64,000 nucleotides of DNA, from NCBI GenBank assembly GCA_036874045.1, contig CM072339.1:7199501-7263500 (forward strand). The letters run 5' to 3'. Shown one piece after another: positions 19,818-60,536 of the stretch. This stretch comes from Cymodocea nodosa. Its lineage: Eukaryota > Streptophyta > Magnoliopsida > Alismatales > Cymodoceaceae. Below the pieces are notes generated by a model, which saw only the letters and a program-made list of their open reading frames with translations, was not told where the DNA came from and ran no database searches. The position numbers and the translations under genes were made by a program. The stretch's first letter is position 1. The number at the start of each line of letters is the position of its first letter.

Positions 19818-21857
19818 TGTTTAGATTGAAAAAGTGCATAATATTAAGGGTTAAATGATGGTTAATTGCATAATATTTAGCTTATCATATGAGAATTAAG
19901 CCATTACATTATAATTGCACTGTTATATGCTTTAATGAAGAAATCTGCATAATTTCATGGAATTAATGTTAATTAAGTACATTTTTAAACTGTTGATGAG
20001 TTTATAGGCTTTGAAATTCTTAAGTATCCGAATTTTCTGTTATTTCAGAGAGTTACATTTTATGTATCAAATAGTTATGTTTTAAATGCTTAAAGAATAT
20101 TTTATTATTTCCTAGAGTACACATGTTGAAACCTCAATGCATGACTTAAGTGAATTTTTGGTAAGTTATCTGTTAACTATCCGACATGCATCTAGACATC
20201 GGATAGTTAAGGTTTGTAAGTATCCGAAATATTTGAACTCGTATAGTTAAGTTATTTGTACGTGTGTTTTTAATGTTTTAAGTTGTCACGTGTTTTCCAT
20301 GTGCATTCGGTAATGAAAATCGAAGAGTTAGATAACTGTTCGAGTTTTTATACGCATGGATAGATAACTATTCAAGTTTTATAAAATGACTAATGAACAA
20401 ATAAGTTTTCTATGTTCAGTCACGTGTTTTGCAGGTACAAAAACTCAAAGAGTTACAGATAAGTGTTCGAGAATTTACATGACTTAAAGGATAAGTGTTC
20501 AACTAAAATGAAGACTTACAAGAATTAGAAGAGTTACAAGAAGATACAATACAAAGAAAAACTACGATTGCATGTATCACGCAGGAATTCACTCGTGGAA
20601 GGAAAAAGAAATCACCATCGTTGATATGAACGAAGGAAATCCAACCGATCATCTAAGCAGAAGCAGTTACTACTGAAAGAAATATAAAAGAAGAGGAGAA
20701 AGATGAAGAAGAGTGTGTGTGTAGAGGTGGAGGACCGTGCTAACTGCAGGAAGCGTCGAAAGTTCCCTAAATCTCCACACCACCACCATAATCACCAACC
20801 ATCGGAGGTTTGTGAGGATACTCTCCTAATGTCGGGTCAATTTTGAGCCAAACACGATGCCTGACAATTATTGTGAGGAGTGATCGCGTCGCGAGAAGGG
20901 AAGCCATTTTCACCAAGCACCGACTCATATCTCAAGAGATCGTAAAGCTTCTAGCCTTGGTTTCGGGTTGATGCTAGTATGTTGAAGAGGAGATCATCTT
21001 ACAATTTTGGATTCGCGATTCTATAGGGAGAGGAGGCAAGATTGTAAGTGATTAAGTTTTCAGTGGTGTAATCACATCGCATGTAGTGACGGAAGTTTTT
21101 ATTGTCGATAGAGATTTTTTATATTTCACCTTTCATTGATCTTCAGGAACATATAAAAACAAAAATACCAAAAACAACAAATTATCTGTGTTTACTTTAA
21201 GTATTAAAGTGTTGTATTGTTTGTTTTGTATCATGATTAATGTTATCATTGTCAGTATTGTGAATGTTTTATGTTTGTTTGATTTAGAAAATAGAAAATA
21301 GTTTTACAATTTACTGAAATTGATTCGTTCCAGATACTTAAAGATTTTAATGGTTACTATTTGAAATATCTAAATGTTAGTGTTGCTTAATGATAAATCT
21401 AATGTTAACTAACATTAAAGAGCTTAATTAATGTTATTTACAATCTATGGAACCACCCAAAGGTTGGCCGAATTCCTCTGTAATTAACAATATTCAAAAA
21501 TTTAAATTAGACTCATGGAGTTAACTTAAGTCCACGAGGTCAGTCTATTGAGTTAGCCATAACTCAACGAACTTAGTTCGTTGTGTTAACTGTAACTCAA
21601 TGGAGTGCTTAACTGAATACATAAACTCCAATAAAAAAATCGAAACAGTACACAATTCTTACTCAATCTCTATGAGATCGACCTGTACTTGCACACAAAT
21701 ACAATATACATTGTGCACTTGCAGTTAAAATACAAATTGGAATTAATATCTAATTTGTGTGAAATGTTGTTTGTTTACTTCTAAAAGTAATCATTGATAA
21801 AAGCATAAAGACAAACCAATACAAGTTTTCTGATTTAACCTTTCACAACAAAGAACA
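19818..21857 (+). repeat. 5' LTR of G1
   Basis: About 2.04 kb, TGTTTAGATTG ... GAACA. TATAAAAG lies at 20683-20690. M2 motifs at 20150-20240, M1 motifs at 21515-21610. It is the same family as the array LTRs (opposite strand) and the 3' LTR at 58781. Confidence 0.9.
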
Positions 21858-21864
21858 AGTTTTC

Positions 21865-21882
21865 TAGCGCCATTGCCAGAGA
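21865..21882 (+). other. Primer-site-like sequence of G1
   Basis: TAGCGCCATTGCCAGAGA, seven bases after the LTR end, closely resembles the TGGCGCC(G/A)TTGCC primer sites typical of Athila-like Gypsy elements. It begins TAG where TGG is usual. Confidence 0.7.
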
Positions 21883-21963
21883 TTGAGAAGCTAAGCAACT
21901 GTGAGTGTTGTTTTGTTTTAATAGTAGGAAGAGTGTTGTGTGTTTTATTCTATAATTGAGAAT

Positions 21964-25260: not shown

Positions 25261-26620
25261 TAATTTTCCTAATGAACAATTAATGACCATCAACACAATG
25301 CCTTGGTATGCAGACATAGTTAATTACTTGGTTATTGGTTTAACACCTAAAGATTGGAATAGACAGGATAAGAAATTATTCTTTTCAAGAGTAAAATATT
25401 ACTATTAGGAAGACCCATACTTATTTAAAAAATGTCTTGATCTAGTTTTAAGAAGGTGTTTTCTAGAAACTGAATATCAGAGCATATTGTCTTTCTACCA
25501 TGACTAAGTATGTGGAGTGCATTTTGGTTCAAGGAAACTGTTGTCAAAATTCTGCAATGTGGTTTTTATTGGCCAACATTATTCAAAGATGCTCATAAAT
25601 ATTTCTTAAGTTATTTAAGATGTCAACAAATAGGAAGAATATCAAAGGGGAATATGATGCCTCTTAATCCTATTGTTGAGATTGAAATCTTTGATGTGTG
25701 GGGAATAGACTTTATGGGTCCATTTCCTACGTCTAATCAATTTAATTATATATTGTTAGGGGTGGATTATGTGTATAAATGGATAGAAGCTATTCCTACA
25801 AAAACTAATGACAACAAAGTGGTAATACATTTTATAAGAATTAATATAATTATCAGATTTGGAATACCTAAAGCTATTATTAGTGATAAAGGAACTCATT
25901 TTTGTAATAGAAGTTTTGAAGACTTAATGAAGAAACATGGAGTAAACCACAAAATTGCAACATCATATCATCCGCAAACAAGTGGACAAGTAGAAAGTGC
26001 AAACAAACAAATTAAGTTGATCTTAGAAAAAGTAGTAAATCCTACTAGAAAAGATTGGGCTAATAGATTAATAGATGCACTTTGGGCTTATAAAACTACT
26101 TATAAGACAAGCTTAGGTATGTCACCTTTTAGGCTAGTATGTGAAAAAAGTTGTCATTTACTAGTTGAAATTGAACATAAAGCTTATTGGACATTAAAAA
26201 CTCTGAACACTAATTTAAATCAAGTTGTTGAAAACAGGAAAATGCAATTGATTGAACTAGAAGAATTTAGGAATGAAGCTTATTCGAAGACTATAAGAGA
26301 AAAAGAGAAAATGAAGTTCTGGCATGACAAGAAAATTATTCTAAAAACCTTTGAAATAGGACAAGAAGTATATCTTTACATGATTAGACTCCATAACCAT
26401 CTAGGAAAATTAAGATCTAGATGGGTAGGACCTTACATAATTTGAAATATTTATCCCTATGGAGCCATTGAAATTGAAAATCCTAAAAATCAGAATATAT
26501 TTAAAGTAAATGGATAAAGACTTAGACCTATTTTGAAAATACCAAAAAGTTCCTTTGGAATTATAGAAGAAGTAAGAGTAAAGGACTACTCGAGCTTTAC
26601 TTAGTAGGAAATTTTCTAAG
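25261..26620 (+). pseudogene. Integrase of G1
   Basis: Ty3/Gypsy integrase. Motifs seen: the zinc-binding part ending CGFYWPTLFKDAHKY and CQQIGRISK, and the catalytic core with [11 protein letters not shown] (first Asp), AIISDKGTHF (second Asp) and [16 protein letters not shown] (Glu), followed by GMSPFRLV, a clade signature, and an HNHLGKLRSRWVGPYI C-terminal end. The string IDFMGPFP with [18 protein letters not shown] is typical of Athila. The same end of integrase occurs on the other strand at 62922-64000. About three breaks. Confidence 0.92.
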
Positions 26621-26629
26621 TTAAAAAAA

Positions 26630-26960
26630 AAAACCTTATTTAAACATAGTCGCGGTTCAATCGAAAGAAATTATCGATTTCACCGAAACATATATTAAAA
26701 GAAAAAAAATCATTGCGATTCAGCCGATAGGATCCATTGGTTTGACCGAAACATAAAAACATAAAAAAATCTATATATTATATTAAGTAAAAATGTCGGT
26801 TTTACCAAAGCATAGTATTGGTTCAACTGGTAAAAAAAAGAAAAAAAAGAGAGTAATTAATTTCGGTTCAACCGAGAATATAAAATGGTTTGACCAAAAA
26901 TTCTAAAATGTTGAAAAATCAAGAGTCGGTTAGACCAGAAATTCTTCGATCTTGACTGAA
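26630..26960 (+). repeat. M3 motif array between integrase and additional ORF
   Basis: About ten degenerate copies of CGGTTCAACCGAAA and its inverse (CGGTTCAATCGAAA, GGTTTGACCGAAAC, TCGGTTTTACC, GGTTCAACTGGT, TTCGGTTCAACCGAGA, GGTTTGACC, GTCGGTTAGACC) separated by A-rich spacers. The same array is kept on the minus strand at 62575-62875 in the second element. Function unknown. Confidence 0.8.
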
Positions 26961-27002
26961 ATAAATATTATTATTATAAGTATTTTTATTAGATATAACT
27001 TT

Positions 27003-27165
27003 ACAGGAAGTCCGTTGAGTTACACTTAACTCAACAAACTTACTCTGTTAAGTCTAGGATTAGTCAACGAACTTACCCCGTTGAGTTAACTATAACTCAA
27101 CGAAGTACTATAGTTAAGTTCATGGACTTAGTCTGTGGAGTTAACTGTAATTCCACGGAGAGGTA
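27003..27165 (+). repeat. M1 motif array before the additional ORF
   Basis: Six or more alternating half-motifs such as CCGTTGAGTTACA, TAACTCAACAAACTTA, GTTGAGTTAACT and ATAACTCAACGAAG. The M1 array is kept at 62360-62520 in the inverted copy. Confidence 0.82.
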
Positions 27166-27327
27166 AGTGAGAGCAAGAGTTTGCACGGGAAAATGACCTG
27201 ATTACCTACCTAAACTTAGGGCTTATTTATATTAAAACTTAGAATTTGGGGGGCATTATTCGCAAAATCATTTAGAACTTAGAACAATAGAGAGTAGAGC
27301 AATTCCATTCCATTTCGTAACTCCACG

Positions 27328-29560
27328 ATGACATATATGACAATAGAATTCTGGGAGGATGCAGTTGACACGTCAGAATTTCTTAAAGAATCAGAGGAAT
27401 GACATACAAGGCAGAAGATCAGAAATACAACGAGGGAAAAAGAGCTACAAAAGGTAGAATCTGACCTTTTCTACTGGAGGAAAGTGTTAGTGGATTTAGG
27501 CATAAAAATACCTCAGATTATGGAAATAAGAATCAGAGAAGCTATGGAAGTTGTTGTGAATAGAGAAAGAAGAATCAAGCCAAATAATGAAGTTGCCCTA
27601 GAGCTAATCCAACACAAGGCTAGATTATGGTTCAAAAGACGCATAGGTAGACGGGCTTAGTGGGTAATCTGGGAGCAATAGAGGAAAGTAAATGAAGAAC
27701 AGGCCACTAAAGAACAACAAGAGGAATCGACTACTGAAAGACCTGTCCCTGAGGAACAGCAGCCAGGACCTTTAGTTTAGCCAATAAAACCATTACCACG
27801 AGTAGCATTTGCTTGGCTGAGGACTGAAGAAGAAAATAAAGAGTTTGCTAGCTTGGTCAAAACAGTAAGAGACCAAGGAGATGATGAGGAAATGGCTATA
27901 GCCAAGGCACATATTTTGTATGATGCCATAAAGAAAAGAAGGGCCAAAGAAAAGTTGAGGGCCCCATACAAAATTAAAGTTGAATAGCATCAGGAAGCAG
28001 CTAGATCAAGTGCTATAAGAGAAGCTGAAGCTGGTCCTTTGAGACTAGTTATTATAGAAAAAATTAAACAGGAAGAGCCAATACTTATGGCTCGAGGGTC
28101 TACAGAGCCTATTTTTGTAGATTTAATCTCAGATGAGGAAGACCAGACACAATTAATTAGAAGAAGGAAAGGAAAAGAGATAGTGCCTGAACATCAAGAC
28201 GAGATTAAATCTGAAATGCAAATATCAATAGGACCTACAGAGCCAATTTATGTAAACTTGCTATCCGATTTTGAGGAGTAGGAGCAGCAGCAACAAGAGC
28301 AAAGAAAAGAAGGAAAACAGGCTAAAACGAATCTACAGCCTATACAAATAGAAGAAACTGAAATTAGGGTAGAAGCTGATTTGCTCATGACTCCATTCCA
28401 ATCTGCCATAGGATCAAAAAGAATAGTGACAATGCAGATTGGTAGTCAGGAGGAAGAAGAAAGAGAAGTTGAACAAGTACTCATTGAACAAGAAAGGAAT
28501 GACTCGATAGATTCCATTGAAGAGAGAGAAACTCTTTAGCAATTAATTGAAAGAATTCAAGATAAAGTGGAGAGTTCTATCAGCTCTCCACCATAGACAA
28601 AAGTAGAAGAAAAAATGCAGGAATCTCTAGAGCATTCTCAACCAATTCAAGTTCAGCACATAGAAGAGGAAATTCAAAAACAAACCCCTCTAGAGCAACA
28701 AATGCAAATTCCTGACCCGACTGAAGTAATAGTTTTAAATGAAGTACACTTTTGGAGTCAGAAAGCTTATAATAAATATCAAGAGATTAGGGGTTATGAT
28801 ATTATTTATAGTAGACTAGTAAACTAGGACAGTATGCAGGAAATTAAGGATTTATTTGAGTTCCAAGGTCTACTGCAAGTTATTTCTCAATAGAGAGGGC
28901 ATGCAGTGTATGAGAATCTACTGCCCTACTTCTATGCAAATTTAAGAGAAGGAGAAAGTAGATTAATTTCCAACGTGGAGCAAGTTGATGTACAGATAAC
29001 CAGAGCTTCTCCACAACATTTTAGGACTAAAGAATGAAGGAATAGAAATTTTGGAAAGCACAATTGCAGTCGAGTGGACAGAACAAATGATAAAGGATTG
29101 TTTAACTATCAATCCTGGTGTGCCATTATTAAATAGACTGAAGCACTTAAAGGGTAAAACACACATGATAGCTAACATTTTGATTAAAAATGTCTACCAA
29201 TGATAAGGCCATGATGTTGAATTAAGTCAGTTTGTCAAATGGGCCACATATGCAGTTGTGAACAGAATTCAGATTAATTGGTCTGCAATTTTTATCTCCA
29301 AACTAAGAGTAGTAAAGAAGAAACTATTTTATGGAGATCTGATTCCACTATTGATGGTGGATAGTATTGATTTCACGAAATGGACGTCCAAAAGGATAAG
29401 ATCAAGAACCATTTCAGTGAAAGAATACAGAAATTATGTTGTTGCTGAGATTACTGAACCTTTTGGAAACATTATTGGAGCTGTAGAGAGGATAAACCAA
29501 TTAGAGCAACAACTAGGAAAACTCTAGAAGGAAGTAGATGAACTTAAGAAGAAAGATTAA
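27328..29560 (+). pseudogene. Additional ORF of G1 (env position)
   Basis: Coding region downstream of integrase, where Athila elements keep an additional (env-like) ORF. It has a helical charged N-terminus, a long Glu/Gln-rich middle with repeated blocks (ARGSTEPIFVDLISDEE; GPTEPIYVNLLSD), then EVHFWSQKAYNKYQEI, MQEIKDLFEFQG and a C-terminal domain with VVNRIQINW and KKLFYGD. No signal peptide or membrane segment is evident, so calling it an envelope gene is not supported. Its C-terminal half is homologous to the additional ORF of Copia S2 (32466-34633). Function unknown. About ten breaks. Confidence 0.72.
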
Positions 29561-30108
29561 ATTGTATTGCTCATCTACGTGTACTTATATTTGTATGAAA
29601 AATATCTGATTGATTGTAAATGTAAATTATTTATATAAATGAATGAATATTATTTAGATGTTTTTACATTTCGTGTTTGAGAATGAATGATATAATTAAT
29701 GAACTATCTTGAATATTATATAATTTTTTAAACAATGTGCAAGACTGTTTAAAAGATTTACAAATTTTATGATTAATATGGTTAAATACACGATAATTAG
29801 TTAATGTTGAAAATATCTGCATGTTGAAAAGTAAAATGTAAATTATGTATAACAGGAAATGAAATGTAAGTTAAATATGCATATAATGTTCAGATTAAAT
29901 GAGTTTTAATTAGAACACTACATTAATGACATGTATTTAACTTTATTTAAGTTGACAAAATGCAGGAGAGAAAAATATACATAAGTTAATACTAGGAGTA
30001 AGTTTTAGAAAATTTGCAGTGTTAACTCAACGAAGTAAGTTCGTTAAGTTAACCTTAACTCCATAAGGTCAATAATAAAATATAAGGTCACCCCGTTGAG
30101 TTAATTGT
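29561..30108 (+). other. Noncoding stretch from additional ORF to leader in G1
   Basis: AT-rich with no gene, LTR end or primer site that I can see. Paired M1 motifs appear at 30018-30105 (AACTCAACGAAGTAAG, TTCGTTAAGTTA, CCCGTTGAGTTA). The last five bases, ATTGT, are the target-site duplication of Copia S2, and the sequence resumes at 41465. Confidence 0.75.
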
Positions 30109-31861
30109 TGTAGGATCGTATGGCTACACAAGAGGGGGTGAATTGTGTATTTTTAATATTTTCTGAAATATAATTGAAACTTTAAAACTCAAAAACAAGT
30201 TGAGACATTGTTTTCATAAAATAATTTTTATTCAAGGTTTCAATTACAATATACAATTCAATTCTTCTCAGAAATTGTAGATGCAATTATAACTCAATAC
30301 CATGTATCATCTAAACAATTTCATAACTACAAACAGAGAAAACTAATTTGCAGAATTTAAAACATTTCTCCCTGTTTGAGATCTGTCTTCTTCTTCTTTC
30401 TTCTTCAGCAATTCTTCAGTGACGAATATCTTGTCTTTTTATGCTTCACCGAATTTGCTTTTTTCTAATACTTCAAATCTTCAGTGACGAAAATCTTACC
30501 TTTTTATGCTTCACTGAATCTTCTTCCACTTGTGAAATTTTTCCTGAAGAGGTGTTTTTGATCCTTGAAAAAGATTTTTCTTTAGGTGTGTAGGGATGGT
30601 TTGATCCTTGAAAAGATTTTTTGTTTTGTGTGCAAGGATGGTTTGATCAATGAGAATTCTATGCCTTTTATACTGTATCTTCATTTCATGCATATCCTTC
30701 ACGTTTAACCACTACCAGTTTTCGACTTCTCCACGTCTTTTCTTTTTCCTTCATCGAAACACACACGTTCTAACCCACATTTATATTTCAAATTTTCTTT
30801 AATCATCAGTCTTGGATCTCTAAAAAATTTCCTGCAAAATAAACTTTCTTGTCTAAAATTTTTTCGTTAGTGTAATAAGAAGTCATTACTTTAATGTTAA
30901 CTAAACGAGTAACACAAGTATATATATATAACTTAACGTTTCTAACTTAACGAGTTCACCATGTGCCATTTCACGTGATAAGTACTGTAACTAACTCAAC
31001 GAACTAAGTCTGTGGTGTTATGCTAACTCAACGAACCAACTTAACCTTTCTTTTGGAAGGTTAAACGATAACTCACCGAAAACAGTTTAAGTTTCGGATA
31101 GTTACAAATGTAAGTCACTGAAAAACTCTTTATATTATAAAACTAGTGAGACATGTGTTAAGACCTGAAAACATGACTTAAGTTACCTTTCGGATAGTTA
31201 CGATTGTAAGTCTCCGAAAAAAAAACTTTAACTCACCGATTCAGTAATAAACAAATGTTTTTATAATAAGAATTTTATCACGTGCAAAAATAACAACTTA
31301 AGTTTATAATGCTAACCTAACGTGTTGCCTTAGTGTTCAATATAGCAACTCAACGCGTTTAGTTATGTTAACTTAACGAGTTAAACATGTGCACCTCACG
31401 TGATACAATACAACATTCGTAACTTATAATTTCACCACGTGTATAACACTAACTTAATGAGTTTGTCTCTTCTTTTACTCACTAACTTAACGAGTTATCA
31501 CGTGATCTATTTTAACCTTTAAGCCTCTAACTTAATGAGTTCTCATGTGACCTCTATACAAACAAAACTCTAACTTAACGAGTTGTCTAAACGTGCATTG
31601 TTCATGATACAAAAGATATAACTTTAAAACATATGATGCTTTTCAATAAAAACACACGTTAACTTAACGTTTAGCTAAATGAGAAATTAATGCAACGAAA
31701 TGACTAGTTATTAACTTCAAATCCAATACAGACAAGTATTTATATTAGTAAGCTTTTTCTGTATTAATTGATGATTTTAATTTCTTTTCACAAGCAATAG
31801 TAATTGAGCAAATATGATTATTTTCATTCAGCACACATCATCAAAACAAAAATACTCAACA
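30109..31861 (-). repeat. 3' LTR of S2
   Basis: TGTTGAGTATT ... CCTACA in element orientation. The TATA box GTATAAAAGGC is at about 30659-30671. The outer half is packed with M1 (30940-31030, 31350-31600) and M2 (31060-31250) motifs and CACGTG cores (31276, 31434, 31498). Confidence 0.96.
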
Positions 31862-31862
31862 A

Positions 31863-48396: not shown

Positions 48397-48410
48397 ATCT
48401 CCCACTTGAA
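48397..48410 (-). other. Polypurine tract of D
   Basis: TTCAAGTGGGAGAT on the minus strand, next to the 3' LTR start TGTTAGGGC. Confidence 0.8.
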
Positions 48411-48634: not shown

Positions 48635-50747
48635 CTACTCTATCTCTTCTCTTATGAAATGAAATCTCATTCTCATATGCTTGGACCTTGAATGGAACTT
48701 CAGATTCTCAACTAAATAAATTGCACTTTGATTGTCACAGAATAGAATACTTCTATTCTGTTTGTGCTCTAATTTGGCTAGTACATTCTCTAGCCAGATT
48801 CTTTCTTTAGCTGCCTCTGCTACTGCAACATATTCAGCTTCTGTGGTCGAGAGTGCAACAATACTTTGCAACTTGGATCTCCAGCTAATTGTAGTACTTC
48901 CTATGCAGAAAACATAACCTGAAGTACTCATTCTTTTGTCCAACTCTCTTCCTAAATCAGCATCATAGTAGCCAATCAATTCAACTAGTCCTTTCTTAAA
49001 ATTCAGATCTACATCTAGGGAATATCTGAGATATCTGAGTATCCACAGTACTGCAGAGCAATGCTCAACTCCTGGTTTTACCATGTATCTACTAACCACT
49101 CCCACTACATGAGATATATCAGGTCTTGTGTATATCATGGCATACATTAAACTTCCCACTACTGAAGCATATGGTATTCTGGACATTCTTGTCCTTTCTT
49201 CTTCAGTCTTAGCTGACTGATCTTTAGACAACTTGAAGTGGGGTCCGAGAGGTAGTTCAATCTTCCTCTCATTTGAGACATTAAATCTCCTCAGTACCTT
49301 TTCTAGATACTTCTTCTGATTTAATCTCAAAGTGTCTGCCACTCTATCTTGGATAATTCTCATACCCAAGATTTGCTTGGCTTCTCCCATATCCTTCATG
49401 TCAAATTCTTTTGACAGTTGTCTCTTCAATTGCTTAATCTATTCCATACTGGAACAAGCAATTAACATATCATCTACATAAATCAGTAGAATAATGAAAC
49501 AATCATCTAGCAGTTTTATGTAGCAGCAATAGTCTGTATCACATCTTTTGAAGCCTAGGGTACAGATAAAGGTATCAAATCTCTTGTACCATTGCCGTGG
49601 TATTTACTTCAAACCATACAGACTTTTCAGCAATCTACAAACTGTCTTTCTTTTCTTGCCAGTAACTGCAAATCCTTTTGGCTGCATCATGTAAAGTTCT
49701 TCCTACAAGTCATCATGTAGGAATGCTGTCTTTACATCCATTTGCTCCAAGAGCAAATTTCTTGCAGCAACAATGCTTAAGACTATTCTAATAGTATTCA
49801 TCTTCACAACAGGAGAGAATACTTCTGTATAGTCTATATCTTGAATTTGCTGAAAACCCTTGACGATAAGTCTGGCTTTATATTTCTTGCTGCTATCTGG
49901 TTGTTCTTTTATCCTGAACACCCACTTGTTTCTTAGGATTTTCTTTCCTTCTGGCAGGGAAGTTAGCTCCCAAGTATTATTCTTCTCTAGGGATCTCATT
50001 TCTTCTTTCATTGCTAACTCTCATTTATGTGCATCACTTGCACAAATTGCTTCTTGATATGTTTCAAGTTCACCATCATCCGTCAATAACAGATAATTGA
50101 ATGATGGTACATACCTTTCTAGTTGTTTGGAGACCCTTCCAGACCTTCTAAGTTGTCTAATGACAACTTCATCTTCTTGATCATCTAGATGTTCTTGATG
50201 TTCAGCCTTTGGAAGTTGAATTTCTTCTACAGGTTCCTTCTGAGGTTGTTCAACATCATTATCTAGACTGATCTCAACAGTACTTCTAGATTGAAGCTCT
50301 AACTGTTGTTCTTCTACACTTTCTCTATGCTTAAACATCTTGGATTCAATGAATATGACATCTTTTGCACGGATTATTTTCTTGGTTTCTTCTACCCAGA
50401 ATCTATAACCAAAATAATCCTTACCATAGCCAATGAAATAACATATCTGTGATTTTGAATCCAACTTGTCTCTTTTGTCACTATTCAAGTGGACAAATGA
50501 CTTGGATCCAAAGACTTTCAAGTGAGCATAGTTGACCTCTTTCCTTGTCCACAACTCTTCAGGGTTCTTAAGTCCCATTGGGACGGGTGGTCCTCTATTT
50601 ATTAGATAGGTAGCTGTATTAACAGCTTCTACCCAGAATCTTTTGGGAAAACTTGCATGCAGTCTCATGCATCTTGCCCGTTCATTCAGGGTCCTGTTCA
50701 TCCTTTTAGCAACTCTATTTTGTTGTGGAGTTCCAGCTACAGTCCTC
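48635..50747 (-). pseudogene. pol of D: integrase end, RT, RNase H
   Basis: Integrase end with GTPQQNRVAKRMNRTLNERAR and FWVEAVNTATYLINRGP (50600-50733), then an acidic connection, RT (MRSLEKNNTWELTSLPEGKK, LEQMDVKTAFLHDDL at 49703-50011) and RNase H (GSLMYAMIYTRPDISHV, GYYDADLGRELDKRMST, TTISWRSKLQSIVALSTTEA at 48635-49429). The family is TNT1-like Copia. It joins at 50747 to the solo-LTR insert. About four breaks. Confidence 0.9.
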
Positions 50748-52346
50748 TGTTGAGCTATATTTTTAGCTCCAACTTTACTGCAAGTGCATAGTTCCTTTGG
50801 TGTACATGGCAAATACAGGTAATTCTTCCACAAGGATTGTGTTTATGACTTAATCAATTATTACTCAATTTGTTCTTCAAGCTCTTAGCTATACTTCAGT
50901 AAATTAATGACATGTGAATGTAGAATAATCAAAATTAACACAAGCTCACAAATCATGTAGTTTCAAGGCAATGTGTAGTGGAAAATGGTGATGTGAATCA
51001 ATTTCTTTACTAGTAAATCTATCAACCCATTCAATTATAACATGCACACAAGTTCCACGTGATTTCAGAAGTTATATCAATGCATAAAAATTGAGGAAAG
51101 AAAAATAAAATACGAAGATTCAATAGGCTATGCTACTCTATTCTAATTTATACTAAATGCATGCAATTATGCTATTTGCTAATCTAGCTAAACTATACTA
51201 TACTACTTGCATTAGAAATTCTTTTTGGAGATTGATTTGAACAAAATGTGATCAATATAAGATATAACAAATTCAGCTAACTACTGAAATTAAAATTAAC
51301 AACTAAGGTAAATGAGAGGTTCTTCATTAAGAAGAAATTTAATACAATATACTTCCAAGTTCTTAAACTCCTCTTCTTCTCCTTTAATCAACACTTCACA
51401 TTCATATGTGCCAAGTATACCATACATAGGTGTCGACCACTCTTGTGGGAGCCCTATGTATGGTCCCAACGAATCAAGTGAATGTAAACTGAAATTAAGA
51501 GAACAATGTAGTAATTAAACTTGAATACACATTTAATCCTACTAAGACATCATAAACAAGAAGTGTATCTCTACCAAACTATTCTAGCTTTCCTCTACTA
51601 CAAGAAAACAAACTTTCCAAGGGCTGTCACTACCTTGGTGAGCTCTGAAAATTTGTAGTAGAGGAACTTGCACAATGGAGCTTTACTAGGGAGCTTGGGA
51701 AGAGCTTTCACTCCCACAAGAATGCTCGGATGCTTAGCCGCGTCTCCACCTCTCGCGTGCATTTTTCCCGGATGCCGAACTCTCGATCGCGTATATGCCT
51801 TCTGCAATATTTCCTTCACCCTTAAATAATTCTCTCCACTGAGCGGATATCACCGAGCGAACGGATTCTCCATCGCGCGTATGTCTCTCACACATACGTC
51901 TCTCGCGCGTGCTTCTCTCGCGCGTTCCCACCAGCTTCCAACATCGAATGTATCACCCTCCAATGAGAATCCATAGATCTAAGGGAGCCAATGAGGTGTT
52001 GGGATGTCCACTTCTTTAAAGTTTAGTCCACCAACTTTGATTATTTACATCTTCTTTTTGCCTTTTGCAATAAGCTCCTTCCACATGTGTGTTACCTATA
52101 ATTAATGGAAATTGAACTCCAAGAGATGTTAGCCAACATAGGATAGGACATTTAAAATAAAATCAATGAGTTATATGTAAAATTATATCTAATGGGGATG
52201 CGCTTGTTAATTAAATTTCTATATTGCACTATATTTCAAGACTTATATTGCCCATAATTAATATTATTTATCCACCATAGATAGATAATATCATGCAAAA
52301 TTACTTATAAAATTCATTAAAAATGGGAAAAATTAAAGCTTGAACA
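50748..52346 (-). repeat. Solo-LTR-like insertion in integrase of D
   Basis: 1599 bp beginning TGTTCAAGC and ending CTCAACA in minus orientation, flanked by TCCTC (50743-50747) and TCCTT (52347-52351), a target-site duplication with one mismatch. No coding region. The 3' part (50765-50850) resembles the end of plant Gypsy LTRs (TGCAAGTGCATAG, AATACAGGTAATTC in plus orientation). A CpG-rich patch (TCTCGCGCGTG repeats) lies at 51740-51930, away from any gene. Best read as a solo LTR; a short nonautonomous element is the alternative. Confidence 0.75.
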
Positions 52347-53487
52347 TCCTTTGCCTTTTAATTCCTTGCTCCTCACAGTAAACTTTAAATTCATGGCTAT
52401 CATATTCTCCTCCATTATTTGACCTAATGGATTTGATTTTTCTTCCACTCTGATTTTCCACTTCTGCCTTCCATTTCTTGAAGACTTGGAAAACTTCAGA
52501 CTTCTGTTTTAGAAAATAAACCCATACCTTCCTTGTACTGTCATCAATGAAGGTGACATAATAGAGAGCACCTCCTAAAGAACTGATAGGAGCAGGCCTC
52601 CACACATCCGTGTGAACTAGCTCCAATTTCTATGACTTAGGATCATGAGGATTCCTAGCAAAGCTAACTTTCTTCTGCTTTCCCTCAATGCAGTCCTCAC
52701 ATATCCCTAAATTGACATTCTTCAGCTTAGGGATTTTCCCTTCTGCCACTAAAACTTTCAGTCCATTCTCACTGAGGTGTCTTAATCTTTTATGCCATAA
52801 GTCAATGTCTTCAGTATCACTGACTACTGTAATGGAGTCATCTTGATCTGATGTTAAATATAAGGTGTCTGTCCTCTATCCTGAGGCAATAATCCTTACA
52901 CCTTTGGTTACCTTCCATTTGCCTACACCAAAGGTAATCTGATAACCATCATTGTCTAGGGAACTTATGGAAATTAATTGCTTTGCAAGATCTGGAACAT
53001 ATCTGACTTCTTGCAATTTCCATATCCCTTGCTTTGTTTTAATGTGTACCTCTCTAATTCCCAACACATCCAAACTTGTGTTGTTAGCTAGGTACACCTT
53101 TTTCATAGGAGTTGCACGATAATTGTGCAACAAATCCTTCCTGTAGGTAGTGTGGAAAGAAGCTCCTAACTCTAGTACCCATGAGTCAATTGAATTATCA
53201 ACACAGCATACTAGGGCATCATCTGAATCATAGGAGACAACATTTGCAACTGCTCCTTCTGATTCCTTCCCTCTACTGTCTTTCTTGGGAGCCTTACATT
53301 GTGACTTGAAGTGCCCCCATTGATTACAGTTCCAGCATTTGATATCTGCTCTCATTTTACTGGTACCTTTGGACTTTGACCTTCCTTTGGATTTAAATTG
53401 TTTTGATTTACTTCTTCCTCTAGTTTCAACACTAAGGGCAGAAGTTGAAGCTGACAATTCACTTTTCCTGCAAATGTCCTCACTCAA
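52347..53487 (-). pseudogene. Zinc knuckle, protease and integrase start of D
   Basis: CCHC zinc knuckle CWNCNQWGHFKSQC at about 53320, basic SKSKQFKSKGRSKSKG before it, protease region (WVLELGASFHTTYRKDLL; VRYVPDLAKQLISIS), the GAG-pre-integrase zinc region near 52700-52790, and the integrase core start ([38 protein letters not shown]). TNT1-like. About three breaks. Confidence 0.88.
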
Positions 53488-53496
53488 AATTAAATC

Positions 53497-54024
53497 CTAG
53501 ATGTCACTCATCTTGAGCTTCTCATGACCTAGTGAACTACTTATACCAGTCACAACAAGAGACCAACTTTCTGGTAATGAGGATAATAAAATCAAGGCCT
53601 TGACTTCATCATCAAATACTATATCTACTGAGTGCAATTGATTCAGAATAGTATTTAGCTCATTAACGTGGTCAGTTACATTTCCATATTCATGCATTTT
53701 TAGATTAAATAATCTACGCATGAGAAATACCTTGTTGGCGATTGAAGGCTTCTCATACATATTAGACAAAGCTTTCATCAAGTCAGCTGTTGTTTTCTCC
53801 TTGGTGACGTTTGAATGAACGTTTCTTGCCAATGACAACCTGACGAGACCTAAAGCTTTTCTATCTAATAACTCCCACTCTTCTTGATCTATCTTCTCTG
53901 ATTTTCTTTCGAACAATGGTTGATAAAGATCCTTCTGATACAATTAGTCTTTGATCTGAGACCTATAGTATCTGAAATCTTTTCCATCAAACTTCTTGAT
54001 CCTGAGCTTTCTGTCGCCTGCCAT
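53497..54024 (-). pseudogene. gag of D, N-terminal part
   Basis: Starts at the ATG at 54024 (MAGDRKLRIKKFDGKDF), the standard TNT1-type gag start, 24 bases from the primer site. UBN2 motifs follow: MKALSNMYEKPSIANKVFLM, RRLFNLKMHEYGNVTDHVNE, ILLSSLPESW. It continues into the zinc knuckle region. About two breaks. Confidence 0.88.
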
Positions 54025-54047
54025 TCTATTTAACTAAAGAACCTTTC

Positions 54048-54059
54048 GCTCTAATACTA
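54048..54059 (-). other. Primer binding site of D
   Basis: TAGTATTAGAGC, two differences from TGGTATCAGAGC; two bases from the 5' LTR. Confidence 0.75.
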
Positions 54060-54061
54060 GT

Positions 54062-55016
54062 TGTTGATTTCTTAACGGATCGTTCAGTAAATCTTCTATG
54101 ACACGATACTGAAACACTCCACTCTAAACTCACCGATGCTAGGAGTGAAGAGTAAGAGAAGAAATAATACATAGAAGAAATAGGATTTACGTGGTTCAGC
54201 AACAGCCTACGTCCACGGAGAGTTGAGGGTTCCTTATGAGCTTTGGCACAATCAACCGCAATGTTTTACAACATCATAAAGGTTTATATACTACCCAACT
54301 TAGGGTTTATAAACCTTTAATTACATACAAGCCATTACAATAGAGAAACAATGCTTCAGAGAAGAGGCTATTAATTTTGGAGCCTTATCTTCTTAACTCT
54401 CCGAAATCTGCAACATTTCGGATAATTACAGACTTAACTATCTGAAGAGAATATTCTTTCTAAACGGGCGGTACAGTACCAGGTTAACTATCCGAGAGAT
54501 TCTATATTTCAGATAGTTACAGACTTAACTGTTCGAAAAGTCACTTACTTTTCTCTCTTTGTCCTTTCGGAAGGTTATGTTGATAACTCACCGAAAACTG
54601 CATGTCTTTCGGATAGTTATACCTTAACTATTCGAAAACTCACTTAAGTGTCTTTTTAGGCATTTCGGAAGGTTCTAACGATAACCCTCCGAAAAACTCA
54701 TGAACTTCGGATAGTTACTACCTAACTATCTGAAGATCCACTTAAGTCACTACTTTCCGGATACTTGGCTTCTTAACTATCCGAACATCCACTTAAGTGT
54801 CCTTTAAGTCATTTCGGATAGTTACAACTTAACTCTCCGAAATCTTCTGACTTTCAGATAGTTAACTCAAAACCTTCGACTTAACTTTTATTTTCAGATA
54901 CTTAAGTCTGTAACCTACCAAAAATATATAATTGCCGAATACTTACTGCTAACAAGCTTCCGATTAAACATTGACTACTTGTGGCATACTCCACACCTAT
55001 AATACTTGCCCTAACA
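54062..55016 (-). repeat. 5' LTR of D
   Basis: 955 bp, partner of 41909-48396. M2 array at 54415-54920 with alternating TTTCGGATAGTTA, TAACTATCCGAAA and CACTTAAGTG. Confidence 0.94.
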
Positions 55017-55017: not shown

Positions 55018-56366
55018 ATGAGCACATGGATTCGTTCTCCTAGCACTAAACGATTAGTAAAAACACCTACACAGGATTATTCAACACAGAGTCGTACTGA
55101 AATATTTTCTGAATTGGACTTTAACGGAATCCTTAGGGGTGTAGCTAACCTTTCTTTAAAAGAGAATGAAGATATAGCTGCTCCAGTAGAAAAACCATTA
55201 GGGGAAATTCTGTATCCTGAACTAATTGATGAACCTTTATGTATTCGATTGCCAAACTTTGAGGGAGATAGGTTTGAATTGAAATCTAATTATATTAGTC
55301 AATTGCCACATTTTCATGGATTAGAAAGAGAAGATGCCTATTATTTCCTTAGAGAACTTAACAAAGTTTGTCAAATAATGAAAATGCCAAACATGAGTAT
55401 TGATGCTATTAAACTTAGATATATCCCTTTTGCTTTAAAAGATATAGCTAAGAGATGGTTATATACTCTATCACCTGATTCAATTTCTGCATAGACTGAA
55501 TTTTGCTCTATTTTTCTAGAAAAATATTATCCAACACATCAAACGATTAAAAAGAAAAAGGAAATATTAATGTGCAGCCAAAAACAGGGAGAATCATTCT
55601 GGAAATATTTTGAAAGATTTAAAGATTTATTGACTCAATGTCTACATCATGCAATGAGTAAAACATAATTAATAGGTATAATTTATGAAGGCATAGATGT
55701 TGCAATGAAATCTTTATTAGAATCTACTTGTTAGAATGGATTTTTAAAACTGTGTAGTGAAGAAGCATGGGCATATTTAGAAAACTTTGCAAAAAGAACT
55801 GCATAGTGGGAAAACTTGATTGAAGCTATTATAGATAAAAGAATATTGCCAAGGTGAATGCATGAAATAGATTCAAGCACTATGCTTGAAGTTAAATTAA
55901 CTGAATTAACAAAGAAAATAGAAGAGTTATCATTAAATCAAAAACTAGCAGAAAAGAATGCAAACATTAATGATTTAGATATTATTTATGCTAGAAACTA
56001 GAAAGATAACTTTGGAAATTCTTATAACCCTAATTGGAGAAATCACCCGAATTTATCTTGGAGAAACAACAATTTCTAGGGAGGAGAAAATATAAATGAC
56101 AAAAATATAAGTTATGAAGTATTAATTGAATAAGGATCTAGAATAGAGAAATTAGAAAAGATAATTCAATAATTAAACAATTGTCTAGATCTTGTATTTG
56201 GAAATGCTGCAATTTAAAATCAAAATATGAATAGAAATATACCTCCTAGATAGGAGGAATCAATGGAAGTTAGACCTACTGGAGGATTGCCAATGCAAGC
56301 AGTACCTAATCCTATCAACAGAACTATTAATGAAATTGATACCTCCTATGGGAGGGAAGCTGAATG
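55018..56366 (+). pseudogene. Athila-like gag (capsid region) of G1, copy 3
   Basis: Gag in G1, downstream of pol and the additional ORF. The ATG at 55018 lies in the TATGA duplicated by Copia D. MSTWIRSPSTKRLVKTPTQD, then VANLSLKENEDIAAPVEKP, capsid (LRYIPFALKDIAKRWLYTL; FERFKDLL), coiled-coil tail (LTELTKKIEELSLNQK) and NPNWRNHPNLSWRNNN, ending ...YGREAE. No CCHC knuckle. It is the shell protein. The F-box gene follows after about 225 bases, as in the other units. About eight breaks, mostly in the second half. Confidence 0.87.
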
Positions 56367-56405
56367 AAGTAGTATAACTAAAGTAACTATGTATAATATA
56401 GTAAA

Positions 56406-56436
<31 letters not shown>

Positions 56437-56590
56437 AAGTTTAATTATAGTTAGTAATATCGTAGAGTTATTACTTAACTCAACGAATTTAGTCCGTTGA
56501 TTTATGACCTAACTCCACGAGGGTAAGTAAGTAGCTATGTTAATTTTGTCTTTGTTAAATTTTTGTTTATGTTATACAAAATCACAACAG
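56367..56590 (+). promoter_or_regulatory. gag to F-box spacer with AT repeat, M1 pair and acceptor-like site
   Basis: An (AT)n run at 56404-56431, an M1 pair at 56475-56530 (AACTCAACGAATTTAG, CCGTTGATTTATGACC) and a T-rich tract (TTAAATTTTTGTTTATG) ending in CACAACAG directly before the F-box ATG at 56591. Consistent with a spliced F-box message; inference only. Confidence 0.5.
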
Positions 56591-57730
56591 ATGAAATTGA
56601 TGAAATTACCACTAGATGCACTAAGGGAAGTACTAAGTAACCTGTCAGCCAAAGATCTATGCAGATTGTGTTGTGTATCAAAGGAAATCAAAGACTGTGT
56701 CAAAGAAAAATATTTTCATGGACTACAAGTTGCAAAAATTACTAAGATTAGAGATGGATTTTTATGGAAGTCATTTAATCGTAGTTCAATCAGCTATGAA
56801 TATCTGAATATGGAAGAAACTGTTGGAATTCCACCCAATACACTAGAAGGTATAGATCATATTATGGGAATAGATGAAGGATTAATTATTTACAAAACCA
56901 AACCAAGGTATGCAATTCTGTTACCTGATATTTTGATTAGAAATCCTATCACAAGAGAAGAATGGAATATAGGAAGACCTAATAGATATGAAGTATCAAC
57001 TAAAAATTATAGGTCAGCTTTAACATTTTCTAATAAAAATTCAACCATTCCTAAAAAATTATATTACTGGAGACCAACTAGAAATTGGGATGAAGATTTA
57101 TGCTTAAGTGTGTATAATTTTCTGAATAGATCTTAGACTGAAAATACTATGATATACCTAGGACAGAAAACATTAATTAACAACATACATGTCATACTTG
57201 ATGGATATATATATTTAGTCACAGATATATCAGTTGCATTTAGATCTGATTTATACATCATAAGCATAGATAGTTATGATGATGATTTTGTAGAAATATT
57301 GCCTATACCTAGTGATATAGCTAAACCATCATCTGCAGAATATGACAAAATTCAATTAGGAATGTGGTATAATGAATATGATGATCCTACTTTATGTTTG
57401 ATAAGATGGTGGGATGAATTGATGAAATTTCAAATATGGATTATGAAAGACCTAAATGAATGGAAGTGGGAAGAGGAATATATTGAAATAGTTGTAGAAA
57501 TAGAAACAACTACATTATCTTGGAATAGAAGAGGATCCCTTTCTGCATTTCATTTCATTAATGGAAATATACTTATATTTAGTATTGATAACATACTCCA
57601 AGTTTACAAATTAAAAAGGAAAACGAACTGCATTAAAATAGAATTAATAGAAAGAAGGTTTATACGTAAAAAGTTTGCTTGGACTGACATGTTTATTTCA
57701 TTTGTTACTACTTTTCAATCATGTTTATAA
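56591..57730 (+). pseudogene. F-box gene carried by G1, copy 3
   Basis: The most complete F-box copy, about 380 residues. F-box at residues 3-45 (LMKLPLDALREVLSNLSAKD; LCRLCCVSKEIKDCV), then the F-box-associated region with GIDEGLIIYKTKPRY, LLPDILIRNPITREEWNIG, YWRPTRNWDEDL, and a C-terminal half with WYNEYDDPTLCLIRWWDEL and FQIWIMKDLNEWKWEEEY. It would be a substrate adaptor of an SCF ubiquitin ligase. No intron is seen inside. About one break. Copies 1 and 3 differ mainly at synonymous sites in the F-box core. Possible roles, against particle-restricting or silencing factors or as a passenger, are speculation. Confidence 0.86.
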
Positions 57731-58769
57731 ATTGTGATTCTATACGTTTAATGTTGTGTAGTTTGCATTTATTTTTTAGAAAAAAAAAGAAGTAAGAAAA
57801 ATTTTAATTTTAGTTTTACTTTATAAAAGAAAAAGAAAAGAAAGAAAAAACAAATTCAATCCAGTTTGTTGGTATCTGTTATGGGAAACCAACTAGCTTG
57901 CTTGTGAGCCACCAAAGGTATAGGAGCCTAGGTTCCACACAAGACACCGATTTAACAATATCTATTTTATTGTTAAATGTTATTTTGTTATATATTCTGC
58001 TATTATTTGTGAATGAAAAGTTTTTCAGAATAAAAAATTGGAAGATATTGAAGGAGATACAAAAGAACAAGATATGTAATTGATTACTTATCCTGAATTT
58101 AAATTTAAACTCAATTTGTGGAGTTATTCATTAACTCAACGAATTAAGTTCGTTGAGTTAGGTGCTAAGTCAACGAAACAATATTCCTACCTGCTAACAT
58201 TTATTAAATTTACTATAAAATCTTTTACATTGAGGACAATGCAAAATGTAGGTATGGGGGGAGGTAACTTGATTAACAGCCAAGTAATTTTGTTAATTAG
58301 AGGAATTAGAATGGTACTGCAAAAGTTCTATGGAAATTGAAAATTTTTATGAATTTGTTGTAACTATTCGATAATTGAGACTATCAAATTTTTAAGAACT
58401 GTAATTGCTTGAATGTTATATTTATAATCTTATATAAGATGCTACAAAATTTTATATTAGAAATTTATAAAGTTAAAACAAATATTAGAAATTCAAGATA
58501 ATAGATATTTGAAAAGAAGAAAAATGATAATATAATTAACACCTATATGATGCTAATATATTTTGTATGTAATTTACATATGTTCTAAATATATTTGCGT
58601 GTTGTAGAGGAGAAAACAAAGTTAAAACAAATTACTGAAAAATATAGAATATCCATATAGTAATCTAAATTATTATTCTGAAGAAGAACAAAAGGAAGAA
58701 TTAATTCTAGCACTTTAGAAAGACCAACTAGTTAGATCTTAGTTTGCTAAGGGACTAGCAAAATTTAAG
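57731..58769 (+). other. 3' noncoding region of G1
   Basis: No coding region. An M1 pair at 58120-58190 (AACTCAACGAATTAAG, TTCGTTGAGTTAGG), a purine-rich GGTATGGGGGGAGG at 58250-58263 that could act as an extra polypurine tract, and A-rich runs at 57780 and 57830. Confidence 0.75.
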
Positions 58770-58780
58770 TATGGGGGAAG
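58770..58780 (+). other. Polypurine tract of G1
   Basis: TATGGGGGAAG immediately before the 3' LTR start TGTTTAGAATG. The same tract precedes the array LTRs at 7246 and 10946 on the minus strand. Confidence 0.85.
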
Positions 58781-60536
58781 TGTTTAGAATGAAAAAGTGC
58801 ATAATATTAAAGGTTAAATGATGGTTAATTGCATAATATTTAGCTTATCATATGAGAATTAAGTCATTATGTTATAATTGCATTGTTATATGCTTTAATG
58901 AAAGAATCTACATAATTTCAAGGAATTAGCATTAATTTAGTACATTTTTGAACTATCAGTAAATTGTAGGCTGTGAAATTCTTAAGTATTCAAATTTTCT
59001 GTTATTTCAAAGAGTTATGTTTAATGTACCAGACAGTTATGTTTTAAATGCTTAAAGAATATTTTATTATTTCTTGGAGTACATGTGTTGAAACCTCAAT
59101 GCATGACTTAAGTGAATTTTCGGTAAGTTATCTGTTAACTATCCGAAATGCATCTAGGCATTAGATAGTTAAGGTTTGTAAGTATTCGAAATATCTAAAC
59201 TCGTATAGTTAAGTTATTTACATGTGTGTTTTTAATGTTTTAAGTTGTCATGTGTTTTCCATGTGTGTTCGGTAATGAAAATCAAAGAGTTAGATAATTG
59301 TTCGAGTTTTTATATGCATGGATAGATAATTGTTCGAGTTTTATAAAATGACTAACGAACAGATAAGTTTTCTATGTTCAGTCACGTGTTTTGTAGGTAC
59401 AAAAACTTGAAGAGTTACAGATAAGTGTTTGAGATTTTACTGGACTTAAAGGATACGTGTTCGACTAAAATGAAGACTTACAAGAATTAAAAGAGTTACA
59501 AGAAGATACAATACGAAGGAAAACCACGATTGCACGTATCACGTAGGAATTTACTTGTGGAAGGAAGAAGAAATCACCATCGTTGATATGAACAAAGGAA
59601 ATCCAATTGATCATCTAAGAAGAAGTAGTTACTACTGAAAGAAATATAAAAGAAGAGGAGAAAGACAAAGAAGAGTGTGTGTGTAGAGGTGGAGGATCGC
59701 GCTAACTATAGGAAGCTTCAGAAGTTCTCTGAAGCTCCACACCACCACCATAATCACCAACCATTGGAGGTCTGTGAGGATACTTTCCTGATGTCAGGTC
59801 GATTTTGAGTCAAACACGATGCCTAACAACTACTGTGAGGAGTGATCATGTTGCAGGAAGGGAAGCCATTTTCACCAAGCACCGACTCATATCTCAAGAG
59901 ATCGTAAAGCTTCTTGCCTTGGTTTCGGGTTGATGCTAGTATGCTGAAGAGGAGATCATCTTACAATTCTGGATTCGTGATTCTATATATAAAATAAAAA
60001 TACCAAAAACAACAAATTATCTGTGTTTACTTTTAGTATTAAAGTGTTGTATTGTTTGTTTTGTATCATGATTAATGTTATCATTATTAGTATTGTGAAT
60101 GTTTTATGTTTGTTTGATTCAGAAAATAGAAAATAGTTTTATAGTTTACTGAAATTGATTCGTTCCAGATACTTCAAGATTTTAATGGTTACTATTTGAA
60201 ATATCTGAATGTTAGTGTTGGTTAATGATAAATCTAATGTTAACTAACATTAAAGAGCTTAATTGATGTTATTTACAATTTGTGGAACCGCCCAATGGTT
60301 GGTTGAATTCCTTTGTAATTAACAATATTCAACTAGAAAAATTAGACTCGTGGAGTTAACTTAAGTCCACGAGGTCAGTCCGTTGAGTTAGCCATAACTC
60401 AATGAACTTAGTCCGTTGTGTTAATTGTAACTCAATGGAGTGCTTAACTGAACACATAAACTCCAATACAAAAATCGAAGCAGTACATAATTCTTACTCA
60501 ATCTCTATGGGATTGACTTGTACTTGCACACAAATT
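58781..60536 (+). repeat. 3' LTR of G1 (partial)
   Basis: Matches the 5' LTR 19818-21857 from its first base to about 21708, roughly 90% alike in the first 430 bases. TATAAAAG near 59645, M2 motifs at 59130-59190, M1 motifs at 60345-60440. It meets a minus-strand Gypsy piece at about 60536, with a few bases (AAATTA) shared at the junction. Confidence 0.88.

What the first reader, a model, noticed from the sequence alone, without database searches (positions are those of the whole stretch)
19818..60536. Ty3/Gypsy element with gag and a captured gene downstream of pol
Seen: with Copia S2 and D set aside by their perfect target-site duplications (ATTGT and TATGA), one run goes LTR, primer site, zinc knuckle-protease-RT-RNase H-integrase, additional ORF, leader, gag capsid, F-box, polypurine tract, LTR. 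No LTR, primer site or polypurine tract lies between the additional ORF and gag. Known: plant Gypsy lineages (Athila, Tat/Ogre, CRM, Tekay, Reina) have gag before pol. I know of none in this order. Inference: either a truly permuted ~16-kb family, with gag made from its own or a spliced RNA, or an old fusion of a pol-bearing and a gag/F-box unit at M1 repeats near 30000. Only one copy of the junction is in the window.
Basis: partly seen in the sequence, partly recalled or inferred. Interest (0 to 1): 0.92.

Follow-up and report, generated by a model that had tools for sequence, protein, structure and literature searches.

The report
Jumping gene with shuffled gene order
An abundant plant retrotransposon family carries its coat-protein gene (gag) after its enzyme genes (pol), followed by an F-box gene, whereas its known relatives place gag first; how it makes its coat protein is therefore an open and testable question.

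Summary
The permuted order is real and recurs through the genome. With three nested Copia elements set aside (each with a perfect 5-bp duplication), window copy P reads LTR, tRNA-Asp-like primer site, zinc knuckle-PR-RT-RH-IN, additional ORF (aORF), leader, gag, F-box, polypurine tract, truncated LTR. The source genome (374.6 Mb) was searchable. At 15 of 15 fetched leader-anchored sites (of 39 other scored places), and at 1 of 1 gag-anchored site of a diverged subfamily, aORF-spacer-leader-gag is contiguous. Two LTR-bounded copies with 5-bp target duplications, one perfect and one decayed, carry this order. Separate best-hit lists for integrase, gag and F-box pair the same way: all 6 same-strand IN-gag pairs have gag 3,977-4,162 bp downstream, none upstream; 8 of 11 gag-F-box pairs are 887-932 bp apart. 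The fetched copies are decayed; longer open gag and pol frames exist. I infer an Athila-like family that makes Gag from a separate mRNA, perhaps from a leader promoter; no RNA evidence was available. Verdict: new variant of a known kind; eight PMC searches found no description.

The parts
19818..21857 (+). 5' LTR of copy P (TGTTTAG...AACA, about 2.04 kb)
   Evidence: LTR end set by the TSD-bounded copies
21865..21882 (+). primer binding site, tRNA-Asp type, 4 mismatches in P, 3 in L022 and L014
   Evidence: the 18-base reference motif is recalled; tRNA-Asp use in Athila kin from PMC1142308
21964..26600 (+). pol region (decayed in P): CX2CX4HX4C zinc knuckle at 22012, LRSG motif at 22645, protease, RT, RNase H, integrase
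   Evidence: Pfam; motifs
26601..27330 (+). spacer sp1 with an M1 palindrome array (27014-27143)
27331..29560 (+). additional ORF (decayed); weak Transposase_32 similarity in its C-terminal part in other copies, below the Pfam cut-off
29561..30108 (+). spacer sp2 with M1 repeats; last 5 bases are the target duplication of Copia D
30109..41459 (-). nested Copia D (TSD ATTGT), not part of the element
41460..41908 (+). leader upstream of gag: M1 array, then TATAAATA at 41721
41909..55016 (-). nested Copia E (TSD TATGA), holding Copia S2 42267-47788 (TSD CTACA); not part of the element
55018..56368 (+). gag (capsid region, HPNLSW and GGLP motifs; no zinc knuckle pattern found), in-frame stops in P
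   Evidence: PF03732 in the homologous copy at 18419-19330(-)
56369..56590 (+). spacer sp3 with M1 array followed by GGGTAAGT
56591..57728 (+). F-box gene (F-box plus FBA_1 below cut-off), one in-frame stop in P
57729..58780 (+). spacer sp4 with M1 array, a PPT-like motif near 58253 and the PPT (about 58772-58780) next to the LTR
58781..60532 (+). 3' LTR of P, truncated by about 160 bases
60533..64000 (-). inverted copy M, part 1: integrase to aORF (runs off the window)
   Evidence: 86% to P 25526-28969
5226..19817 (-). inverted copy M, part 2: leader, gag, F-box, PPT, LTR (ends about 5226), split by nested element N (16351 to 8762)

Best explanation
This is a copy of a large Ty3/Gypsy LTR retrotransposon family, Athila-like in most features, in which the capsid part of gag has left its place between the primer site and pol and now sits after pol and the additional ORF, followed by an F-box gene. 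Shown: the order recurs across the genome, and LTR-bounded copies carrying it have target duplications, so it was copied as a unit. Inferred: Pol with its zinc knuckle is translated from the full-length LTR RNA, whose first ORF starts about 80 bases after the PBS. Gag is made from a shorter, separate mRNA, most likely started at a promoter in the leader (M1 array plus TATA) or spliced from the LTR. Gag:Pol ratio would then be set by two RNAs instead of by processing or frameshifting of one. The F-box protein would bind the host SKP1/SCF system, possibly against silencing factors. My 0.85 is for the structural claim; the separate-mRNA step alone I put near 0.7, the leader promoter near 0.4.
For: Order: 15 of 15 leader-anchored sites have aORF-sp2-leader-gag contiguous; 10 of 15 also have pol upstream in the same orientation and 11 of 15 have the F-box downstream (one partial), the rest being cut by other sequence within the fetched pieces. 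One site is uninterrupted from ZK to sp4 (L031/L032). A gag-anchored site of a diverged subfamily (sp2 72%, leader 82%, gag 84% identity) has the same junction. Target duplications: C2:15311950-15329454 AAACT/AAACT; L011/L012 TCGCA/TTGCG. Coordinate pairing within 20 kb: IN-gag 6 of 6 same-strand pairs at +3,977 to +4,162; gag-F-box 8 of 11 pairs at +887 to +932. Long open frames in genome hits: 11 of the 150 scored gag hits have an open frame of at least 350 codons and no stop (counted by eye); integrase frames up to 1,319 codons. Expression hints: TATAAATA about 175-185 bases before the leader's end in 12 of 12 P-type copies scanned (11 fetched pieces plus P; L033, L035-L037 not scanned), TATAAATT in M, TATA-like runs in L038. 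GTAAGTG in 11 of 11 aligned LTRs.
Against: No RNA or protein data. A TATA-like match in 443 AT-rich bases is weak evidence (by my own arithmetic about 0.8 expected by chance for the loose pattern). Among fetched copies substitutions fall nearly evenly on the three codon positions: mostly neutral decay, with only weak bias at shared sites in gag (p=0.034) and F-box (p=0.022), uncorrected for nine tests. All 12 gag copies examined have in-frame stops (75 in all). IN first-look candidates (12,051) exceed gag (5,354); the queries differ, so the numbers are only roughly comparable, but pol-bearing kin without this gag, of unknown order, may exist and could supply Gag.
Confidence: 0.85

Rival explanations
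1. Permuted family in which gag is a passenger: copies were mobilised in trans by Gag of another, canonical Athila-like family, and the downstream gag was never needed.
For: Gag in all 12 examined copies has stops and codon-position bias is weak. More first-look candidates for IN than for gag. Trans-mobilised elements are known among LTR retrotransposons (recalled).
Against: Gag is still present at 15 of 15 sites and in a diverged subfamily; 11 of 150 gag hits have long open frames without stops. The best match in this genome to a gag from another, unnamed source (P0001) lies in the permuted family (1 of 150 hits checked).
Confidence: 0.2
2. Gag mRNA arises by splicing from a donor in the LTR (GTAAGTG) to an acceptor before gag, like retroviral env, and not from an internal promoter.
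For: GTAAGTG kept in 11 of 11 LTRs. Splicing of an env-like RNA is reported for Bagy2 (PMC7264820, passages); predicted LTR donors are noted for Diaspora (PMC1142308).
Against: No acceptor before the gag ATG was established (looked at by eye, not tested systematically); the LTR stretch may be kept for other reasons.
Confidence: 0.3
3. One-off fusion or assembly artefact at M1 repeats.
For: The junction lies in repeated palindromes, and the window is a heap of nested elements.
Against: Same junction at every one of the 16 fetched sites on several contigs, in a diverged subfamily, and in two TSD-bounded copies.
Confidence: 0.02
4. Two separate elements (LTR-pol-aORF and LTR-leader-gag-F-box) recombined recurrently and independently into this order.
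For: One unit in L016 has LTR joined directly to leader-gag-F-box-LTR; window element N is LTR-gag-F-box-LTR without pol.
Against: The L016 unit lacks the last part of the LTR and any PBS, and N's first LTR is cut short and joined to a gag without its start, so both look like deletions. Other LTR-gag contacts (L012, L020, L026) are ends of nested insertions or cut copies. The aORF-to-gag stretch aligns end to end in the copies seen. At six mapped LTR-internal borders (P, L014, L015, L022, L033, L036) the LTR is followed by the pol leader.
Confidence: 0.04

Closest known systems
Athila / Calypso / Diaspora (non-chromovirus OTA Ty3/Gypsy)
   Same: Pol order PR-RT-RH-IN, no second RNase H found in the scanned pieces, tRNA-Asp-type PBS a few bases after a long LTR, CX2CX4HX4C motif upstream of protease, extra ORF after pol in Athila-type kin (PMC1142308, PMC6317226, PMC7264820; passages).
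   Different: Those carry gag and pol in one ORF, gag first (PMC1142308). Here capsid is downstream of pol and aORF and the zinc knuckle stays with pol; an F-box gene is added.
Gmr1 group of Ty3/Gypsy
   Same: A permutation inside a Ty3/Gypsy element (PMC2774666, passages read).
   Different: There integrase has a Copia-like place within pol; the passages read do not mention a moved gag.
Ty3/Gypsy elements with captured host domains, e.g. orchid ALKBH-type m6A demethylase (PMC9289625)
   Same: A host-type domain fixed in a Ty3/Gypsy family.
   Different: Different domain; no permuted gag is mentioned in the passages read.
Ogre/Tat/Retand with additional ORFs
   Same: Long elements with ORFs outside gag-pol.
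   Different: The survey gives gag first; Tat has an additional RNase H domain (PMC6317226), not found in the pieces scanned here.

Membership tests
Ty3/Gypsy superfamily | PROT-RT-RH-INT order in pol | tested here: met
Ty3/Gypsy superfamily | GAG upstream of PROT (order GAG-PROT-RT-RH-INT, PMC6317226) | tested here: not met
   gag downstream of IN at the 9 fetched sites where both blocks were mapped, and in 6 of 6 same-strand coordinate pairs
LTR retrotransposon | two LTRs, TG..CA, 5-bp TSD, PBS, PPT | tested here: met
   TG decayed to TA in one TSD-bounded copy, PBS deleted in the other; PPT read in the window only
Athila lineage | RT phylogeny | not tested
   The 120 best-listed relatives of the RT-RH piece are 50-73% identical, e.g. 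71% over the full query to a Prunus brigantina protein, but no named Athila or Tat references were at hand for a tree
Athila lineage | PBS complementary to tRNA-Asp | tested here: met
   15 of 18 bases in L022 and L014, 14 of 18 in P, 12 of 18 in L015; tRNA-Asp shown for Diaspora
Athila lineage | no additional RNase H (which marks Tat) | tested here: inconclusive
   only RT_RNaseH and RT_RNaseH_2 found, but copies are decayed and not every piece was scanned
Athila lineage | zinc knuckle CX2CX4HX4C between capsid and protease | tested here: not met
   knuckle pattern found in the pol ORF (P, L014, L022), none in gag; capsid lies 3' of pol
F-box proteins | F-box domain above Pfam cut-off | tested here: met
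   PF00646 42.2 bits versus cut-off 20.5
F-box proteins | binds SKP1 | not testable with these tools
   needs a binding assay

The most novel reading that the evidence does not exclude
A lineage of LTR retroelements that has given up gag-pol linkage. Capsid is a separate 3' gene with its own promoter or subgenomic RNA, the nucleocapsid zinc knuckle belongs to Pol, and every gene is headed by a palindromic M1 array acting as a shared control element, with an F-box protein as a fourth gene.
Probability: 0.4. Interest if true: 0.87.

Novelty: new variant of a known kind. Interest (0 to 1): 0.77.

Why it matters
Gag-before-pol in the plant elements surveyed (PMC6317226) fits a model in which one RNA must yield much Gag and little Pol. 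A family with thousands of candidate gag places and gag last shows that this order can be broken without stopping amplification, and offers a direct test of how Gag:Pol balance can otherwise be kept. Annotation that expects gag first would miss or split such elements. The F-box gene, present wherever the 3' half was read uncut, suggests a protein-degradation tool used by a retrotransposon, as polerovirus P0 carries an F-box-like motif that contacts SKP1 (PMC6593998, listing and start of abstract seen).

Tried and rejected
LTR end at 21897 (CTAAGCA): rejected, because TSD-bounded copies end about 40 bases earlier, before the PBS. sp2/leader as remnant of an old LTR: no similarity beyond M1 (local alignment scores within about 2 SD of shuffles) and no PBS-like site beyond chance. 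Leader as coding: stops in all frames except a short 3' stretch. Selection tests: Nei-Gojobori ratios of 0.27-0.54 (F-box frame wrong there, corrected) are not trusted because substitutions are spread evenly over codon positions. M1 as an ORF-free signal: clean in P (1 of 27 hits in ORFs) but not in L031/L032, where 5 of 26 hits lie in ORFs, 3 of them in gag against 0.6 expected. Host origin of the F-box: none of 60 candidates reached E 0.001. IMG/VR scan with RT-RH: none. Protein search with the gag piece: one relative. Canonical-order relatives in this genome: a search with an external RT (P0003) did not complete.

Literature: eight searches aimed at gag-after-pol, permuted or unusual order, or F-box capture found no description; three of them returned no paper at all, phrase matching is strict, most listed papers were seen as listings only, and subscription papers are not held. 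Searches (Athila features; P0) had other aims. Passages were read of PMC6317226, PMC7264820, PMC2774666, PMC9289625 and PMC1142308 (of the last also the section on structure); other papers were seen in listings with abstract starts.
Full report
WHAT IS THERE. A self-comparison of the window resolves a stack of nested elements. Copy P (+ strand) starts with an LTR at 19818 and ends in a truncated LTR at 60532. Inside it lie Copia D (30109-41459), Copia E (41909-55016) and, within an LTR of E, Copia S2 (42267-47788), with perfect 5-bp duplications ATTGT, TATGA and CTACA. With these set aside P reads LTR - 7 bases - PBS - zinc knuckle/PR/RT/RH/IN - sp1 - aORF - sp2 - leader - gag - sp3 - F-box - sp4 - PPT - LTR. 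Pfam names RVT_1, RT_RNaseH, rve and F-box in P and Retrotrans_gag in the matching gag of the inverted copy M; protease scores below its cut-off, and the zinc knuckle is a CX2CX4HX4C pattern found in P, L014 and L022, not reported by Pfam. Copia D splits an M1 palindrome that is restored when the target duplication is collapsed, so aORF and leader were adjacent before D inserted. Copy M, inverted, carries IN-aORF to the right of P and leader-gag-F-box-PPT-LTR to its left. I read this as P inserted into M, with about 1.1 kb of M and the end of P's 3' LTR lost at the right junction; hence P has no TSD.

IS IT ONE OF A KIND? No. The window's own genome was available (374.6 Mb, 28 contigs). The leader has 3,921 first-look candidates; 40 places were scored near full length, the 39 besides the window's own at 91-94% identity. 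I read 15 of these 39 in 9.5-20 kb (maps). In 15 of 15, aORF, sp2, leader and gag follow each other with no LTR block between (a primer-site scan of that stretch was made in P only). Pol lies upstream in the same orientation in 10 (L009, L011, L014, L022, L024, L028, L031, L035, L036, L037); in the other five the aORF is cut by other sequence. The F-box follows in 11 (one partial, one resumed after a nested insertion); in the other four gag or sp3 is cut. L031/L032 runs uninterrupted from ZK to sp4. One gag-anchored place, the best genome hit of an outside gag protein, is a diverged subfamily (sp2 72%, leader 82%, gag 84% identity) and shows the same aORF-sp2-leader-gag junction. The seven loci read first, L002-L008, are seven of the same 15 sites.

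IS IT A UNIT OF TRANSPOSITION? Two copies are LTR-bounded with target duplications. C2:15311950-15329454 has AAACT on both sides; its LTR ends CACAATCAAACA, followed at the 5' LTR by a 7-base spacer and a PBS with 15 of 18 tRNA-Asp positions. Its pol is partly deleted and holds a nested fragment. The L011/L012 copy lies in the gag of another copy, with TCGCA and TTGCG at its ends, which fits a TCGCG duplication with one CpG transition on each side; its PBS and early pol are deleted. LTR pairs are 89-94% identical (four pairs), so the copies read are old.

SEPARATE CHECK OF ORDER. I scored the best genome hits of three proteins: an integrase of this family (125 of 12,051 candidates), an outside gag (150 of 5,354) and P's F-box (150 of 5,400). 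Within 20 kb there are 8 IN-gag pairs: 6 on the same strand, all with gag 3,977-4,162 bp downstream; 2 on opposite strands; none same-strand upstream. There are 11 gag-F-box pairs, 8 of them at +887 to +932 on the same strand; the other three are at -11,777 and +10,721 (same strand) and -16,498 (opposite). There are 5 IN-F-box pairs: 4 same-strand downstream (4,298-5,561, two of them a near-identical duplicate pair), 1 opposite. IN against the 40 leader places gives 4 same-strand pairs: three with the leader 3,540-4,808 bp downstream and one 15.6 kb upstream, too far for one element. These lists favour well-preserved copies, and the IN-gag and gag-F-box pairs do not depend on the leader.

HOW IT MAY WORK. 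Shown: the first ATG after the PBS (21964) opens the zinc-knuckle/Pol frame, capsid is encoded 3' of the aORF, and the spacers carry M1 palindromes (in P 26 of 27 hits lie in LTR, sp1, sp2, leader, sp3 and sp4; in L031/L032 21 of 26 lie in spacers and leader, 3 in gag). Inferred: Pol from genomic RNA and Gag from a separate RNA. For an internal promoter speaks TATAAATA at a fixed place in the leader in 12 of 12 P-type copies scanned, with TATA-like letters in M and in the diverged L038; the motif is not rare in such AT-rich DNA. For splicing speaks GTAAGTG in 11 of 11 LTRs. Neither is proved. F-box action on SKP1/SCF is inference by analogy with polerovirus P0.

SELECTION AND AGE. In the copies read, frames are decayed: gag has 75 in-frame stops in 12 copies and F-box 14 in 10, against 531-638 and 388-461 in the other frames, so the frames are real. 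Variable sites are nearly even over codon positions, as expected of dead copies; a weak bias at shared sites appears in gag and F-box only, of nine segments tested. By my count, 11 of 150 gag hits keep an open frame of 350 codons or more without a stop, and one search lists integrase frames up to 1,319 codons, so better-preserved copies exist.

ORIGIN. Diaspora, a canonical relative, has capsid, zinc knuckle and protease in one ORF (PMC1142308). Here knuckle and LRSG motif stay with pol, while capsid, the HPNLSW motif and GGLP...NP are downstream. That is what moving the LTR from before to after capsid on a circular intermediate, or a recombination between M1 arrays, would give. This is inference; the leader shows no trace of an old LTR or PBS.

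KNOWN OR NEW. A survey of 8,453 plant Ty3/gypsy elements gives the order GAG-PROT-RT-RH-INT, with GAG not identified in 159 of them (PMC6317226). The nearest permutation I met concerns integrase, not gag (Gmr1, PMC2774666). Eight PMC searches found no gag-after-pol plant element; absence there is not proof. Because the defining position of gag is not met and no RT tree was made, I file it as a permuted variant related to Athila, not as a canonical member.

LIMITS.

Noticed in passing
LTR ends: window 5226-5320, 8762-8800, L014 and L022 5' LTRs: LTRs of different subfamilies end in differing tandem runs that contain decayed PBS-like stretches (CTGGTGCCG..., CTGACGCCATTGCCAGGGA) before the true LTR end, as if primer sites had repeatedly been absorbed into the LTR.
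   Followed up: partly
32469-34669 (-) and 35036-35946: Copia D carries a C-terminal ORF related to the Gypsy aORF (33% identity over 93 aa, E=1e-10 as a single comparison) and shares a 0.9-kb segment (75%) with the sp4 of this Gypsy family: a module shared between Copia and Gypsy elements.
   Followed up: partly
8762-16351 (-): Nested element N: LTR (truncated) - gag - F-box - PPT - LTR without pol, flanked by AGATA/ATATA (one mismatch); its right end runs past a PBS-like stretch to CTAAACA. Not resolved whether this is a non-autonomous form or a deletion.
   Followed up: partly
M1 arrays at 21547-21601, 27014-27143, 30023-30103, 41464-41538, 56462-56518, 58118-58174: Palindromic GTTGAGTTA/TAACTCAAC arrays lie before each ORF and near the 3' end; Copia D and copy P both inserted at the centre of the same homologous M1 palindrome, which looks like an insertion hot spot.
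   Followed up: partly
L021: One copy holds two F-box genes in a row with parts of sp3/sp4 duplicated.
   Followed up: no
58253-58264 and 58772-58780: Two PPT-like motifs about 0.5 kb apart in P; in copies that keep the 0.9-kb segment in sp4 more sequence lies between them. The outer one adjoins the LTR.
   Followed up: no
G000:C15 9.67-9.68 Mb and 9.95-9.96 Mb: Two copies with integrase 99% alike and the same IN, leader and F-box spacing, probably a recent segmental duplication.
   Followed up: no
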